NCBI RefSeq assembly: GCF_031583025.1 | Contig: NZ_CP134062.1 | Coordinates: forward strand, 124,001-188,000 | Source of the DNA: Mycobacterium sp. Z3061 | GTDB taxonomy: Bacteria > Actinomycetota > Actinomycetes > Mycobacteriales > Mycobacteriaceae | DNA length: 64,000 nt | Reading direction: 5' to 3' | Shown here: piece by piece, positions 3,959 to 27,929 of the stretch | Layout: every line of letters begins with the position of its first letter | Numbering within the stretch: position 1 is the first letter of the stretch | Translations under genes and position numbers: made by a program | Notes under the pieces: model-generated | Seen by the model: only the letters and a program-made list of their open reading frames with translations | Databases searched by the model: none | What the model was told of the DNA's origin: nothing

Positions 3959-5290
3959 CTAGGCAGCCGCGCGACGGCGCACGATGACACGCCCTCCGCC
4001 GCTCGGCAGAAATCCCAGGCCACCGGTCCGCATCGTCTCTTCGGGCGTGGCGGCAGGATGGATCTCCATGTGGCGCAGCACCGTTCGCAACACGACGTCC
4101 ATCTCCATCTTGGCGAATGCCGCTCCCGCGCAGCGCCGCGTTCCGCCGCCGAATGGAATCCAGGCGAAAGGCGACGGCTTGCCCTGGATGTAGCGCTGCG
4201 GATCAAACCGCTCGGGTTCCGGAAACGCCTCGGAGTCGTTGTGGCATGCGGAGATGCTGACGACGACGGAGTACCCGGGCGGGACGGTGTTCGGTCCCAG
4301 TTCGAACGCAGAGCCACGGACGCGGCGGCCGGAGAAATCGATGACCGAGCGGGTGCGCTGCACTTCGTATATCGTCGCGTGACGCAGGGTGCTGTCAGCG
4401 GTTTCGGCCTCGGCGACCAGCGCCGAAAGGACCTCAGGCTGGCGACTGAGCCGCTCGAACGCCCAAGCCAGGGTGGTGGCGGTGGTCTCGTGTCCGGCGA
4501 CGAGCAGAGTGAGTAGGTCATCACGAATGTCCTTGCGGGACATGACCGAACCGTCGTCGTATGAGCTGGCGAGCATCAGCGACAGGATGTCGGTGTGTTC
4601 CGCCGATTCCGGCCGCTGCCGCGCCTTGTCGATCAGGCGATCGATCACAGTGTCGTACCTGCGTCGCCACGTTGCCAAACGGCCCCACGGTGTGAAGCGT
4701 CCGTAAGTCCGCCGCGGCATCGGCAGTGTCGAAAGGCGCGATCCGAGTTTCGCCCACGGCACGATCACCCGCCGCAGTTCCTCGAAGTCGTCGCCTTCGG
4801 CCCCGAACACCGCTCGCAGGATGACGTTGAGCGTGATCGCCTTCATCGCCGCCAGGGTGGCGAATTCCGTTCCCTGTGGCCAGTTCTGAATCTCGCGCAG
4901 CGTCTCCTGCTCGACGATCCGCTCGAAGTTCTTCATGTTGGCGGCATGGAAGGGTTGCGCCAGCAGCTTACGACGGCGCCGGTGCTCGGTACCCTCCAGG
5001 CCGAAGACGGAACCCGAACCCAGCAGGCGGCTCAGGTTGGGCTCGATAGCGCCGAGGTTGTCGCCCCGGCTCATGAAAACCTGCTTTGCCAAGCTCGGTT
5101 CGGCCACCACCACCAAACGTCCGAACACCGGCAGGTGCAGCGTGAATGCGCCACCGTAGCGGCGAGTGAGCCACTGCGTGGTCTGCCGCCGGGCGGTGAA
5201 GAATGCGAGGCCCTGTAGCGCCCTGGGAACGATCCGGGGCGGACCCGGCGGCAGTCCGGCCGCCGGAACGGCGTTGACAACGTTCGTCAT
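3959..5290 (-). CDS. Cytochrome P450 (last gene of the mmpL operon)
   Basis: 443-residue full-length P450. Landmarks: Pro-rich N-terminus LPPGPPRIVP, I-helix AGHETTATTLAWAF, ExxR as EVQR, and haem loop FGGGTRRCAGAAFAKME with the Cys ligand. The EVQRTRSVIDF segment recalls the mycobacterial CYP135/CYP138 group (from memory, not a search). The start is fixed by an ATGA overlap with the stop of the acyltransferase gene (5287-5290), so it is translationally coupled as the fourth gene of mmpL-thioesterase-acyltransferase-P450. Position suggests oxidative tailoring of the product of the divergent mbt genes, probably using the ferredoxin and reductase at 28973-30359. That link is inference. Confidence 0.93.
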   Translation of the reverse strand: MTNVVNAVPAAGLPPGPPRIVPRALQGLAFFTARRQTTQWLTRRYGGAFTLHLPVFGRLVVVAEPSLAKQVFMSRGDNLGAIEPNLSRLLGSGSVFGLEGTEHRRRRKLLAQPFHAANMKNFERIVEQETLREIQNWPQGTEFATLAAMKAITLNVILRAVFGAEGDDFEELRRVIVPWAKLGSRLSTLPMPRRTYGRFTPWGRLATWRRRYDTVIDRLIDKARQRPESAEHTDILSLMLASSYDDGSVMSRKDIRDDLLTLLVAGHETTATTLAWAFERLSRQPEVLSALVAEAETADSTLRHATIYEVQRTRSVIDFSGRRVRGSAFELGPNTVPPGYSVVVSISACHNDSEAFPEPERFDPQRYIQGKPSPFAWIPFGGGTRRCAGAAFAKMEMDVVLRTVLRHMEIHPAATPEETMRTGGLGFLPSGGGRVIVRRRAAA

Positions 5291-6690
5291 TCGACCACCC
5301 CATCGAGGCCGAACTCGCCGAGGGTACGAGACACCAGGTCGCGCAATATCGGCTTCGAATTGCTCACCCCGGCCTGGTACGCGCCGACGGTGATGCACAT
5401 CTTGCCGCCCAGTCGCAGGAACCACAGCGACAGTTCGCCGTGGGCGCGCTCGAGGTCTCCCCGCAGCACCCGCTGGATCACGCCGCGCCCGAAGGCGAAT
5501 TCGGCCGGTGTGCCGTCGGGGCAGCCGGCCATGGCGGCCAGCTCACCGAGACTCGAGGAAGCCACGGGCAGATCACCGAAGGCGAACTCGGCCTCGGCCG
5601 CCTGCTTGAGCACCCGCCTGGGGATGAACGGCACCAGCGGGGCGAGCGGGAGGGTGGGCGAGGCCTGTTCGGGATTCTCCCGAAGCGTCTCGAACGTCTT
5701 CCTGATGGCCGCGCGGGTTTGCGCCAGGTCGACCGTCACCAGGGACGGGTCGATACCGACGCTGACGAACGACAGCGTATTGGCCCGGGTGTCCTGTTCG
5801 GTGCGGTCGCTGAGCGGCACCTGCAGGGCGACGGCACCGTCACCGCTCCGCCGGCGACCCAGTCGCTCCCCGAGTTTCGCCGCCAGGCCGGCGGCCAGAT
5901 GGTGACTGGTGCCGCCGAGCGCCTCCGCGCGAGCATCCCAATCCTTGACATCGATATGGATGACGACCGCCGGCACCGCTACGCGCTCGTTGGGGTCAAA
6001 GCCGCCAGCGTTGTGCCGCTCGGGGATTGGATCTGGTGCGGCACCGCGTCTCCGTTGACGTGACAATCGGACCGCGGCACGGAGGGCACGTGCGGCCCCC
6101 GGGACGTCCTGGATCGTCTGGCGGGCGTCCTGCCCGACTGCTCGGAGCCGGGGCCGCGAGCACGGGGGCGGATAACCGAGCTCGCGCCGGTTGCCCGCGG
6201 CGGCGTCCGCGATCGCGCGAACCACTCCGAGACCGTCGATCAGGCAGTGTGAGGCGACCAGGCTCACCACGGTCGTCCCGTCCGTCAGCGGGACGACGCC
6301 GAGATGCCAACCCGGGCCTCGCTCCGGATCAACTGGCAGCCGGGCGCGATTGTCGATCCAGTCCCCGAGTTCCGCTCGCGGGCGGGCGCATTCGTCGATA
6401 TCGAGGGCGGTCGGCCATCTGTCCCGCACCCATCGGTCGCGCGCGAAGGGTATCGGCGACCGCTCGATGCGGCGGCCCAGTAGCCCATAGCCGAGGTTGT
6501 GGTGAAAGCGCGCCAGAGCCTCCAGGTCGATGGGGTGTTCGTACAGCCACACGCATTGGACGACGGCATCGCGGTCCATGGCGCGCAGGGTGCAGAACAT
6601 GGCCTGGTCCGCCGGTGAGAGCTGATTGTCCTGCGGCACTGCGGTGTTCGGTGAGCTGTCGGCTCGGTCTGGAGCTGTCTGAAGTCGCAC
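5287..6690 (-). CDS. Condensation-fold acyltransferase (PapA / WS-DGAT-like)
   Basis: 467 residues. Member of the CoA-dependent acyltransferase/condensation superfamily: the active-site motif appears as SHCLIDG with the catalytic His near residue 148, and a C-terminal half with the second lobe. Members esterify or amidate an alcohol or amine with an acyl-CoA or carrier-bound acyl chain. GTG at 6688-6690 is chosen because GGAG (6700-6703, complement) precedes it by 9 bases; a GTG at 6639 has no ribosome site. The gene follows the thioesterase by 28 bases and overlaps the P450 by four. A role in acylating the mbt-locus product is plausible but not shown. Confidence 0.82.
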   Translation of the reverse strand: MRLQTAPDRADSSPNTAVPQDNQLSPADQAMFCTLRAMDRDAVVQCVWLYEHPIDLEALARFHHNLGYGLLGRRIERSPIPFARDRWVRDRWPTALDIDECARPRAELGDWIDNRARLPVDPERGPGWHLGVVPLTDGTTVVSLVASHCLIDGLGVVRAIADAAAGNRRELGYPPPCSRPRLRAVGQDARQTIQDVPGAARALRAAVRLSRQRRRGAAPDPIPERHNAGGFDPNERVAVPAVVIHIDVKDWDARAEALGGTSHHLAAGLAAKLGERLGRRRSGDGAVALQVPLSDRTEQDTRANTLSFVSVGIDPSLVTVDLAQTRAAIRKTFETLRENPEQASPTLPLAPLVPFIPRRVLKQAAEAEFAFGDLPVASSSLGELAAMAGCPDGTPAEFAFGRGVIQRVLRGDLERAHGELSLWFLRLGGKMCITVGAYQAGVSNSKPILRDLVSRTLGEFGLDGVVE

Positions 6691-6718
6691 TGGTGAGGTC
6701 TCCGATCGGTCTCTGTGC

Positions 6719-27101: not shown

Positions 27102-27303
27102 CGAGACCGCGACGTTCGTCGTGGTCGTCAACGACGAAGAGCAGCACAGTTTGTGGCCCACCTTCGCCGACATCCCGGCGGGCTGGCGACGGGTCTTCGG
27201 TGCGGCGAGCCGGGCGGAGTGCCTGCAATTCGTCGACGAACACTGGACCGACATGCGTCCGAAGAGCCTTCGCGCGGCCATGAACTCACAGGCAACGCCG
27301 TGA
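27079..27303 (+). CDS. mbtH: MbtH-like protein
   Basis: 74-residue NRPS chaperone that binds A domains and activates or solubilises them. Diagnostic residues are present: NPFDDE, the EEQHSLWPTFADIPAGW core with conserved Ser-Leu-Trp and Pro-Gly/Ala-Trp, and WTDMRPKSLR near the end. ATG 27079 is preceded by GAGGAGG at 27067-27073, inside the end of mbtG. Presumed partners are the MbtE and MbtF A domains. A second MbtH paralogue lies at 39795-40025. Confidence 0.95.
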   Translation: MSTNPFDDETATFVVVVNDEEQHSLWPTFADIPAGWRRVFGAASRAECLQFVDEHWTDMRPKSLRAAMNSQATP

Positions 27304-27929
27304 CCGACACGGACGTCATGCTGCCGCGGGAACGGACCGAGCTACCCGACGAGGTCAGGCGGATCCCACCTCCGCCGTCGCGGCCGGAAGTGCCAGCTCC
27401 CTACGCATTTCGGCTCGCTGACCCATACGCCGATGCCGAGATGATCTCCGAGTGGATGCGCCGGCCGCATCTGGCCGCCGCCTGGGAGTACGTCTGGCCG
27501 GTGTCACGATGGCGCCGCTATCTGCTGGCGCAACTGGACGGCAGCTACTCCCGCCCGTTCGTCGCCAGCATCGATGGCCGCGACCATGCCTACGTCGAAC
27601 TGTACTGGGCCGCCAAGGATTCGATCGCCACCCGGTATCAGTACGATCCGCACGATCTGGGCATACACGCCGCCATCGCCGATCCGGCAGTCACCAACAA
27701 GGGCATTGCGCAATTTGTGTTGCCACACCTGGTGGCCAGCGTGCTCACGGACGAGCCGGAATGTCGTCGGGTGATGTTCGATCCCGACCACCGGAACACG
27801 ACCGCGCGCCGGTTCTGTGAGAGCGCGGGCTGCGTGTTCCTCGGCGAGCACGACATGACGAACCGCCGGATGGCGCTGTACGCACTACCCCGCACGCCTG
27901 CGGATGTTCCCCGGCGGAGGGCTTCGTAG
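27300..27929 (+). CDS. mbtK: MbtK-like lysine N-acyltransferase
   Basis: 209-residue GNAT-fold enzyme that puts the fatty acyl chain on the (hydroxy)lysine side chain of mycobactin. Same length as M. tuberculosis Rv1347c/MbtK (210 from memory). His123 in LGIHAAIADP and Asp161 in VMFDPDHRN are 38 apart, the same spacing as the reported catalytic His130/Asp168 pair of MbtK. The GTG start overlaps the mbtH stop as GTGA, so it is the last gene of the coupled mbt series. In M. tuberculosis this gene sits in a separate mbt-2 locus, so the physical linkage here is notable. Confidence 0.9.
   Translation: MTDTDVMLPRERTELPDEVRRIPPPPSRPEVPAPYAFRLADPYADAEMISEWMRRPHLAAAWEYVWPVSRWRRYLLAQLDGSYSRPFVASIDGRDHAYVELYWAAKDSIATRYQYDPHDLGIHAAIADPAVTNKGIAQFVLPHLVASVLTDEPECRRVMFDPDHRNTTARRFCESAGCVFLGEHDMTNRRMALYALPRTPADVPRRRAS

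What the first reader, a model, noticed from the sequence alone, without database searches (positions are those of the whole stretch)
3959..27929. Mycobactin-type locus with mbtA/mbtB missing and an mmpL-TE-acyltransferase-P450 operon in their place
mbtC-D-E-F-G-H-K are contiguous and coupled, but no salicylate-AMP ligase, phenyloxazoline synthase or salicylate synthase gene lies upstream of mbtC. The divergent position is filled by an exporter, an editing thioesterase, an acyltransferase and a P450. Either mbtAB sit elsewhere or the siderophore has another cap (for example an acyl group) and oxidative tailoring.
Basis: partly seen in the sequence, partly recalled or inferred. Interest (0 to 1): 0.72.

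Follow-up and report, generated by a model that had tools for sequence, protein, structure and literature searches.

The report
Mycobactin assembly line without its starter
A group of non-tuberculous mycobacteria carries a second copy of the machinery for the iron-binding lipid mycobactin that has lost the genes for the salicylate starting piece and gained others, so it probably makes a different, still unknown molecule.

Summary
In the window (Mycobacterium gordonae) mbtC-D-E-F-G-H-K are contiguous and mbtA, mbtB and mbtI are absent beside them; a P450, a WS/DGAT-like acyltransferase, mbtT and an mmpL lie in their place. mbtA/mbtB/salicylate synthase exist elsewhere in the genome, in a complete nocobactin-type locus at 4.57-4.60 Mb. 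This is not a one-off: 16 distinct loci of one clade share it (M. kansasii-complex species, szulgai, angelicum, alsense and others), and in 396 sampled genomes the P450 at >=70% identity occurs in 17, always beside this MbtE. The strongest evidence is a footprint. The first condensation domain of MbtE, which would join salicyl-serine to lysine, has lost its catalytic histidine in 7 of 16 loci and in 0 of 36 loci that keep mbtA/mbtB, and is clearly relaxed in 15 of 16. The other catalytic residues checked are kept wherever readable. Iron-box (IdeR) sites are gone in 15 of 16. I read it as a redundant mycobactin line that was decapitated and re-used: it starts on MbtE's lysine and makes a hydroxamate peptide without the phenol-oxazoline. 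The replacement cap (acyltransferase, P450) is inferred. No product is known.

The parts
3959..5425 (-). cytochrome P450 of the cassette (likely start near 5290)
   Evidence: Pfam p450 194.5 bits; copies >=70% identical in 17 of 396 genus genomes, each beside its MbtE; heme Cys and I-helix Thr kept in 16 of 16
5287..6864 (-). WS/DGAT-like acyltransferase (homologous part from about 6630)
   Evidence: Pfam WS_DGAT_cat, below cut-off in the window copy, 8 of 10 members of alignment A1 match at E<=0.001; motif SHxLxDG in 15 of 15
6719..7537 (-). type-II thioesterase MbtT, inverted relative to mbtA/B-bearing loci
   Evidence: Pfam Thioesterase 163.5 bits; the same gene sits between mbtB and mbtC in most mbtA/B-bearing loci
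7548..10496 (-). MmpL-family transporter; not a constant part of the cassette
   Evidence: NCBIfam actII/MmpL 914.5 bits; intact upstream in 4 of 16 loci
10497..10827 (.). divergent promoter region; no IdeR box found
   Evidence: best IdeR-matrix score 9.1, against 20-26 in 35 of 36 mbtA/B-bearing loci; recalled consensus: no site with <=5 mismatches in the window
10828..12231 (+). mbtC, ketosynthase
   Evidence: Pfam KS; Cys/His/His kept in 16 of 16
12132..15161 (+). mbtD, AT-KR-ACP
   Evidence: NCBIfam PKS_MbtD 1305.8 bits, cut-off 1150
15167..21442 (+). mbtE, C1-A1-PCP1-C2-A2-PCP2
   Evidence: Pfam domains; relatives
15206..16351 (+). C1 of MbtE: degenerate condensation domain, N-terminal motif missing, catalytic His replaced by Gln
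   Evidence: alignments
16394..17851 (+). A1 of MbtE, code DVAHVIFVNK, expected to load lysine
   Evidence: code compared across 53 rows; the ten positions were placed by recalled anchor motifs
18161..19519 (+). C2 of MbtE, intact HHxxxD
19574..21136 (+). A2 of MbtE, code LEMTLCNGAK without the Asp that binds an alpha-amino group
   Evidence: best PDB relatives are NRPS A domains
21439..25815 (+). mbtF, C-A-PCP-terminal C
   Evidence: Pfam; catalytic His and PCP Ser kept in 17 of 17
25725..27101 (+). mbtG, lysine N6-hydroxylase (likely start near 25812)
   Evidence: Pfam Lys_Orn_oxgnase; 67% identical to the genome's other MbtG
27079..27303 (+). mbtH
   Evidence: Pfam MbtH 98.3 bits
27153..27929 (+). 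mbtK-like GNAT acyltransferase (true start probably near 27300)
   Evidence: Pfam Acetyltransf_8 146.9 bits; found after mbtG in 16 of 17 loci of the set, not found there in 4 of 4 mbtA/B-bearing sister loci

Best explanation
The locus is a former mycobactin assembly line that became redundant beside a second complete siderophore locus, lost mbtA, mbtB and its iron boxes, and was kept for a different product. Synthesis starts at module 1 of MbtE: A1 loads (N6-hydroxy)lysine, and C1 no longer condenses a salicyl-seryl donor onto it. C2, MbtC/MbtD, PCP2 and MbtF then proceed as in mycobactin (hydroxy acid by ester, second hydroxylysine, release as caprolactam), with MbtG and the MbtK-like GNAT making the hydroxamates. 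The free end of the first lysine is probably acylated by the WS/DGAT-like enzyme, and the P450 oxidises the product. Shown: gene content, clade, selection pattern, loss of the C1 catalytic residue, loss of iron boxes, retention of the other active sites examined. Inferred: substrates, order of assembly, the roles of the acyltransferase and P450, and the existence of the product.
For: Complete second locus with MbtA-like, MbtB-like and chorismate-binding genes in the same genome. Cassette shared by 16 distinct loci in one clade (100/97; M. fragae, which keeps mbtA/B, lies inside). P450 >=70% in 17 of 396 genomes, each beside this MbtE. C1 catalytic His lost in 7 of 16 loci (Q, Q, P, P, R, R, S) against 0 of 36 mbtA/B-bearing loci; at least 4 losses, 7 residue changes on the tree. 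C1 breaks 6.3-22.5% of positions invariant in mbtA/B-bearing rows in 15 of 16 loci (3.5% in MFM001), against 0-4.1% in 20 mbtA/B-bearing rows and 1.4% in M. fragae. Other active sites kept wherever the frame is readable. dN/dS 0.04-0.41 for the tabulated genes and domains. IdeR site of 19 bits or more in 1 of 16 against 35 of 36.
Against: In 9 of 16 loci the C1 catalytic His is still there, so a donor in trans remains possible in those species; in MFM001 C1 is hardly relaxed (3.5%, inside the mbtA/B-bearing range). The second His of a condensation domain is not absolutely required in every enzyme (recalled). MbtD is split into two frames in G228 and in the M. szulgai draft, and MbtE's frame ends before PCP2 in M. 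alsense, so some copies may be decaying. The P450/acyltransferase roles rest on position and conservation alone, and Ca. M. methanotrophicum lacks the acyltransferase in its locus. C1 is still under some purifying selection (dN/dS 0.19-0.41). MbtD has dN/dS of 0.24-0.41 and no mbtA/B-bearing comparison was made for it. M. fragae shows that mbtA/B loss was not a simple single event, or was reversed. A sign test on independent pairs had too few pairs to decide.
Confidence: 0.7

Rival explanations
1. The line still makes ordinary mycobactin: MbtA/MbtB of the second locus hand salicyl-serine to MbtE in trans.
For: 13 of 14 genomes tested from the clade encode an MbtB-like protein elsewhere and the same 13 a salicylate synthase; 9 of 16 loci keep the C1 catalytic His; C1 of MFM001 is hardly relaxed.
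Against: C1 is relaxed in 15 of 16 loci, including 8 of the 9 with the His; M. gordonae and its two sisters lack the first C1 motif; in Ca. M. methanotrophicum neither MbtB nor salicylate synthase was found, yet it keeps the locus.
Confidence: 0.12
2. A decaying relic without function.
For: MbtD split in G228 and M. szulgai, MmpL reduced to 175 aa in G228; MbtE frame ends early in M. alsense; IdeR boxes lost; C1 decays.
Against: dN/dS 0.04-0.41 in the tabulated genes and domains, with MbtG, P450, A1 and C2 at 0.08-0.27; active sites other than C1 kept wherever readable; two added genes, P450 and MbtK, kept in nearly all loci.
Confidence: 0.13
3. C1 was converted to another job (starter acylation or a docking scaffold for A1) rather than abandoned.
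For: C1 dN/dS stays at or below 0.41; the first His and the Asp of its motif are unchanged in every row.
Against: The catalytic His is replaced by Q, P, R and S in different lineages, and the N-terminal motif is lost in M. gordonae, G228 and G203.
Confidence: 0.25

Closest known systems
Mycobactin mbt-1 locus (mbtA-mbtJ; P-type mycobactins)
   Same: MbtC, MbtD (passes the NCBIfam MbtD cut-off), MbtE-MbtF-MbtG-MbtH order, mbtT thioesterase
   Different: no mbtA, mbtB or mbtI; no IdeR box found; P450 and WS/DGAT-like genes; MbtK beside MbtG/H; first C domain degenerate
Nocobactin/M-type mycobactin locus (NbtC PKS; compare the long-alkyl mycobactins of M. abscessus and M. marinum in PMC9505556, passages seen)
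   Same: MbtC-G chemistry; this genome's second locus has the NbtC-type PKS (1361 bits, cut-off 1150)
   Different: that locus has MbtA-like and MbtB-like genes and IdeR-like sites; the window locus has none of these
mbtA/B-bearing locus of M. fragae (L041)
   Same: mbtA/B-bearing member of the same clade; MbtE 74% identical to the window's
   Different: keeps mbtA, mbtB, a 20.5-bit IdeR site and an unrelaxed C1; no P450/WSD cassette in the stretch read

Membership tests
Mycobactin biosynthetic locus (mbt-1) | MbtD-type PKS | tested here: met
   NF037940 1305.8 bits, cut-off 1150
Mycobactin biosynthetic locus (mbt-1) | MbtE/MbtF NRPS and MbtG hydroxylase in line | tested here: met
Mycobactin biosynthetic locus (mbt-1) | MbtA, MbtB and salicylate synthase feeding the line | tested here: not met
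   absent at the locus; MbtA/B absent from 16 of 16 distinct loci of this type; MbtB and salicylate synthase found elsewhere in 13 of 14 genomes tested
Mycobactin biosynthetic locus (mbt-1) | active first condensation domain of MbtE | tested here: not met
   by sequence: catalytic His replaced and N-terminal motif missing in the window copy; activity itself not tested
Mycobactin biosynthetic locus (mbt-1) | IdeR-controlled promoter | tested here: not met
   by sequence: best site 9.1 in the window, 1 of 16 loci with a site of 19 or more
Mycobactin biosynthetic locus (mbt-1) | product chelates ferric iron | not testable with these tools
   no product known
Nocobactin-type locus | NbtC-type PKS | tested here: not met
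   window MbtD 678.4 bits against the 1150 cut-off of NF037941; met by the genome's other locus
WS/DGAT acyltransferase family (gene 5287-6864) | Pfam WS_DGAT_cat above cut-off | tested here: inconclusive
   21.0-21.4 bits against 23.6 in the window copy; 8 of 10 members match at E<=0.001

The most novel reading that the evidence does not exclude
A natural case of an NRPS line that lost its initiation modules and was re-initiated at an internal module: a paralogous mycobactin line, released from IdeR control, that puts a new acyl cap on N-hydroxylysine and makes a P450-tailored bis-hydroxamate lipopeptide with a role other than ordinary iron uptake.
Probability: 0.35. Interest if true: 0.8.

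Novelty: new variant of a known kind. Interest (0 to 1): 0.62.

Why it matters
It looks like a natural experiment in shortening an assembly line: when the upstream donor goes, the condensation domain that needed it relaxes, while the rest is held by selection. It suggests that M. kansasii-complex species, M. szulgai, M. gordonae and relatives hold an unrecognised metabolite beside their siderophore, and that counting 'mbt genes' per genome can mislead. The signature (C1 relaxation plus P450 plus lost iron boxes) can be used to sort mbt loci in genome data.

Tried and rejected
AlphaFold model of the acyltransferase: mean pLDDT 54, too poor; no fold search was made with it. PDB sequence search with the acyltransferase: 0 hits up to E=1. 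A sign test on independent pairs for His against mbtA/B had too few pairs (3-4) to decide. A 9-10-bit site in the M. gordonae-group promoters was not taken as an IdeR box (below the mean maximum of 30-kb shuffles; 4 of 200 shuffles of the promoter alone reach it). The M. fragae question (one loss with regain, or several losses) was left open: its MbtC is nearer mbtA/B-bearing loci, its C2/A2/MbtF nearer mbtA/B-less MFM001. The extra A domain of MbtE was considered as the cause of the missing cap and rejected: its code is the same in both classes. The C1/(A1,C2) ratio is noisy for mbtA/B-bearing rows (counts of 0-6; some ratios exceed 2, one has a zero divisor), so the percentages are used.

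Literature: the ten searches did not show a report of this locus; one search listed 12 of 325 papers. Seen: listings; passages of PMC9505556, PMC10667711, PMC4810606 and PMC9121174; a term search of PMC6974680 without hits. The paper PMC3194918, cited in PMC9505556 (recalled as the 2011 mutational and phylogenetic study of the mbt cluster), is not held, so it may hold relevant remarks.
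Full report
What is there. The window lies at 124,001-188,000 of a one-contig 6.79-Mb genome and is Mycobacterium gordonae: the named record L037 is 98-100% identical over the nine main genes compared. On the minus strand lie a P450, a WS/DGAT-like acyltransferase, a type-II thioesterase and an MmpL. On the plus strand lie MbtC, MbtD, MbtE, MbtF, MbtG, MbtH and an MbtK-like GNAT. MbtD passes the NCBIfam cut-off for mycobactin MbtD (1305.8 bits, cut-off 1150). There is no mbtA, mbtB or mbtI at the locus: no AMP-binding domain lies on the contig before mbtE and no chorismate-binding enzyme in the window.

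The missing genes are elsewhere. The same genome has a complete nocobactin-type locus at 4,569,507-4,591,737: an MbtB-like protein of 1208 aa, MbtF, MbtE (1676 aa), a GNAT, MbtT, MbtC, an NbtC-type PKS (1361 bits, cut-off 1150), MbtG, and an MbtA-like protein nearest the DHB-AMP ligase family (546 bits, below that family's cut-off), with a chorismate-binding enzyme about 11 kb further on. It carries three IdeR-like sites of 21-23 bits.

It is a clade, not an accident. The search for related loci gave 51 named loci (it finds close relatives only). Of these, 13 have P450 and/or acyltransferase genes and no mbtA/B in the stretch read (M. gordonae, persicum, sp. MFM001, attenuatum, szulgai, sp. 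Marseille-P9652, Mycolicibacter sp. MYC340, Ca. M. methanotrophicum, ostraviense, gastri, angelicum, innocens, alsense), 32 have mbtA and/or mbtB, and 6 cannot be classed this way. In a sample of 396 genomes of the genus, 118 hold an MbtE of this kind at E<=1e-250. I read the upstream parts of 20 of the 22 with the closest MbtE (the other two are the window's genome and a second M. gordonae): this added three mbtA/B-less loci (G228, G203, G222) and four mbtA/B-bearing sisters (G060, G186, G339, G191); G379 was too short to class, and the rest were the named records again. The upstream parts of the other 96 were not read in this sample. In a tree of MbtE A1-C2 (C1 left out), the 16 distinct mbtA/B-less loci, M. 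intermedium (contig cut) and M. fragae form one clade (100/97). M. fragae, inside it, keeps mbtA/B, so mbtA/B presence needs two changes. The P450 at 70% identity or more occurs in 17 of the 396 genomes: the 16 distinct mbtA/B-less loci and the second M. gordonae, each beside its MbtE; the next matches fall to 63% and belong to a genus-wide paralogue. The acyltransferase is in the locus in 15 of 16, the MbtK-like gene in 15 of 16 and in M. intermedium, and an intact upstream MmpL in only 4 of 16. Downstream of MbtG in the four mbtA/B-bearing sisters no MbtK was found.

The footprint in MbtE. MbtE's first condensation domain would join the salicyl-seryl unit from MbtB to lysine (pathway knowledge). 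Its catalytic second histidine (HHxxxDG) is replaced in 7 of 16 mbtA/B-less loci (window Q, alsense Q, G228 P, MYC340 P, P9652 R, G222 R, methanotrophicum S), in 0 of 36 mbtA/B-bearing loci (32 named, 4 sampled) and in 0 of 6 unclassed. Fisher's test ignoring kinship gives 9e-5. On the tree this is at least 4 losses and 7 residue changes, inside a clade that makes up 36% of the tree length without M. fragae's branch (0.36^4=0.017; 0.36^7=0.0008). M. gordonae, G228 and G203 also lack the first C-domain motif. The other catalytic residues I checked are kept in every readable copy: KS Cys/His/His, AT Ser/His, KR Ser/Tyr, ACP Ser, MbtF His, PCP and terminal C His, MbtG nucleotide sites, P450 Cys, thioesterase Ser/His and acyltransferase His/Asp in 15-17 copies each, and PCP1, PCP2, C2 and the A-domain lysines of MbtE in the 13 of 16 loci checked for these. 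Not readable: the AT sites of MbtD in G228 and M. szulgai, where the frame is split, and A2 lysine and PCP2 in M. alsense, whose MbtE frame ends early.

A leave-one-out control. I took positions invariant in the mbtA/B-bearing rows and asked how many are broken. In 15 of 16 mbtA/B-less rows C1 breaks 6.3-22.5%; in 20 mbtA/B-bearing rows it breaks 0-4.1%; M. fragae, inside the clade, breaks 1.4%. The sixteenth, MFM001, breaks 3.5%, which is within the mbtA/B-bearing range. In all 16, C1 breaks 2.2-5.5 times the mean of A1 and C2, but this ratio is noisy where counts are small. C1 is therefore relaxed in most loci even where the histidine survives. M. intermedium breaks 14.1%, which predicts that its unread upstream part lacks mbtA/B; its genome showed only a nocobactin-type MbtB (74%) and a 35% match. 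Pairwise dN/dS agrees: C1 median 0.25 in 10 pairs of the clade against 0.13 in 11 mbtA/B-bearing pairs (Mann-Whitney p=0.0008; pairs share members), C2 0.16 against 0.12 (p=0.07). Tabulated genes and domains of the clade stay at 0.04-0.41, with MbtD (0.24-0.41) among the highest, so the locus as a whole is under purifying selection.

Iron control. With a matrix trained on the mbtA/B-bearing loci (so circular for those 32), sites of 20 bits or more occur in 31 of 32 (L065's contig starts inside mbtB) and, outside training, in 4 of 4 sampled sister loci and in the genome's other locus. Among 16 mbtA/B-less loci only M. angelicum has one (19.8), and its sister M. szulgai has a decayed counterpart (1.7) at the same place. 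The window's best is 9.1; the best of a shuffled 30 kb averages 10.8. With a recalled consensus and up to 5 mismatches, 29 of 32 mbtA/B-bearing and 2 of 13 named mbtA/B-less loci have a site, one of the two (M. szulgai) not in the promoter.

Can MbtB act in trans? Of 14 genomes of the clade tested (M. intermedium included), 13 encode an MbtB-like protein elsewhere (10 at 71-97% identity to this genome's nocobactin-type MbtB, 3 at 52-53%). In Ca. M. methanotrophicum none was found, and it is also the only one of 17 genomes without a salicylate synthase match. Redundancy with a second locus is thus the rule and probably allowed the loss, but the C1 data speak against a donor in trans.

How it most likely works. 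A1 has nearly the code of M. fragae and of the mbtA/B-bearing loci (DVAH/DVGH...), so lysine loading is expected (from knowledge of the pathway). MbtC/D, C2, MbtF, MbtG and MbtH are intact in the window, so a lysine - hydroxy acid - cyclic lysine core with hydroxamates is expected. Without the phenol-oxazoline it would offer four iron ligands rather than six. The acyltransferase is the best candidate for a new cap on the first lysine and the P450 for oxidation; both are inferences.

What is known. Passages of PMC9505556 describe the M. abscessus and M. marinum mycobactins, with a long alkyl chain in the PKS-derived part, and putative iron boxes at M. abscessus mbt genes; this helps to place the genome's other locus. 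Passages of PMC4810606 describe mbtE deletions in M. avium subsp. paratuberculosis, which is a simple loss, not a remodelling. My ten searches (listed in Tried and rejected) showed no report of this locus; PMC3194918, likely the fullest study of mbt clusters, is not held.

Noticed in passing
window 40819-64000 and on beyond 223 kb of the genome: A 3955-aa PKS-NRPS (40819-52686) is followed by an NRPS open frame of 16,070 aa with 15 adenylation-domain matches; a second mbtH (39792-40025) lies just upstream. The product is unknown.
   Followed up: no
window 19574-21136 (A2 of MbtE) and relatives: MbtE carries an extra adenylation domain with the code LEMTLCNGAK in all 44 fully readable of 53 rows (4 more lack only the last position, 5 lack the domain), without the Asp for an alpha-amino group; the C2-A2 stretch is found in 118 of 396 genomes sampled. 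It may activate a non-amino acid.
   Followed up: partly
L045 / G304, Ca. Mycobacterium methanotrophicum: No MbtB-like gene (E<=1e-40) and no salicylate synthase (E<=1e-60) were found in this genome, although it keeps the mbtA/B-less locus.
   Followed up: partly
L108, L109, L110 (G060, G186, G339): In these mbtA/B-bearing loci MbtF is nearest the nocobactin-type MbtF (52-53%), while MbtE and MbtG are of mycobactin type: mosaic loci.
   Followed up: no
L088 (G228): MmpL is reduced to 175 aa and MbtD is split into two frames; M. szulgai MbtD (L042, L097) is also split.
   Followed up: no
own genome C1:516237-517535: A genus-wide P450, about 60% identical to the cassette P450, is a possible source of it by duplication.
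   Followed up: no
L081 (M. houstonense): The mbtB-TE-mbtC stretch appears twice in tandem, perhaps an assembly artefact.
   Followed up: no
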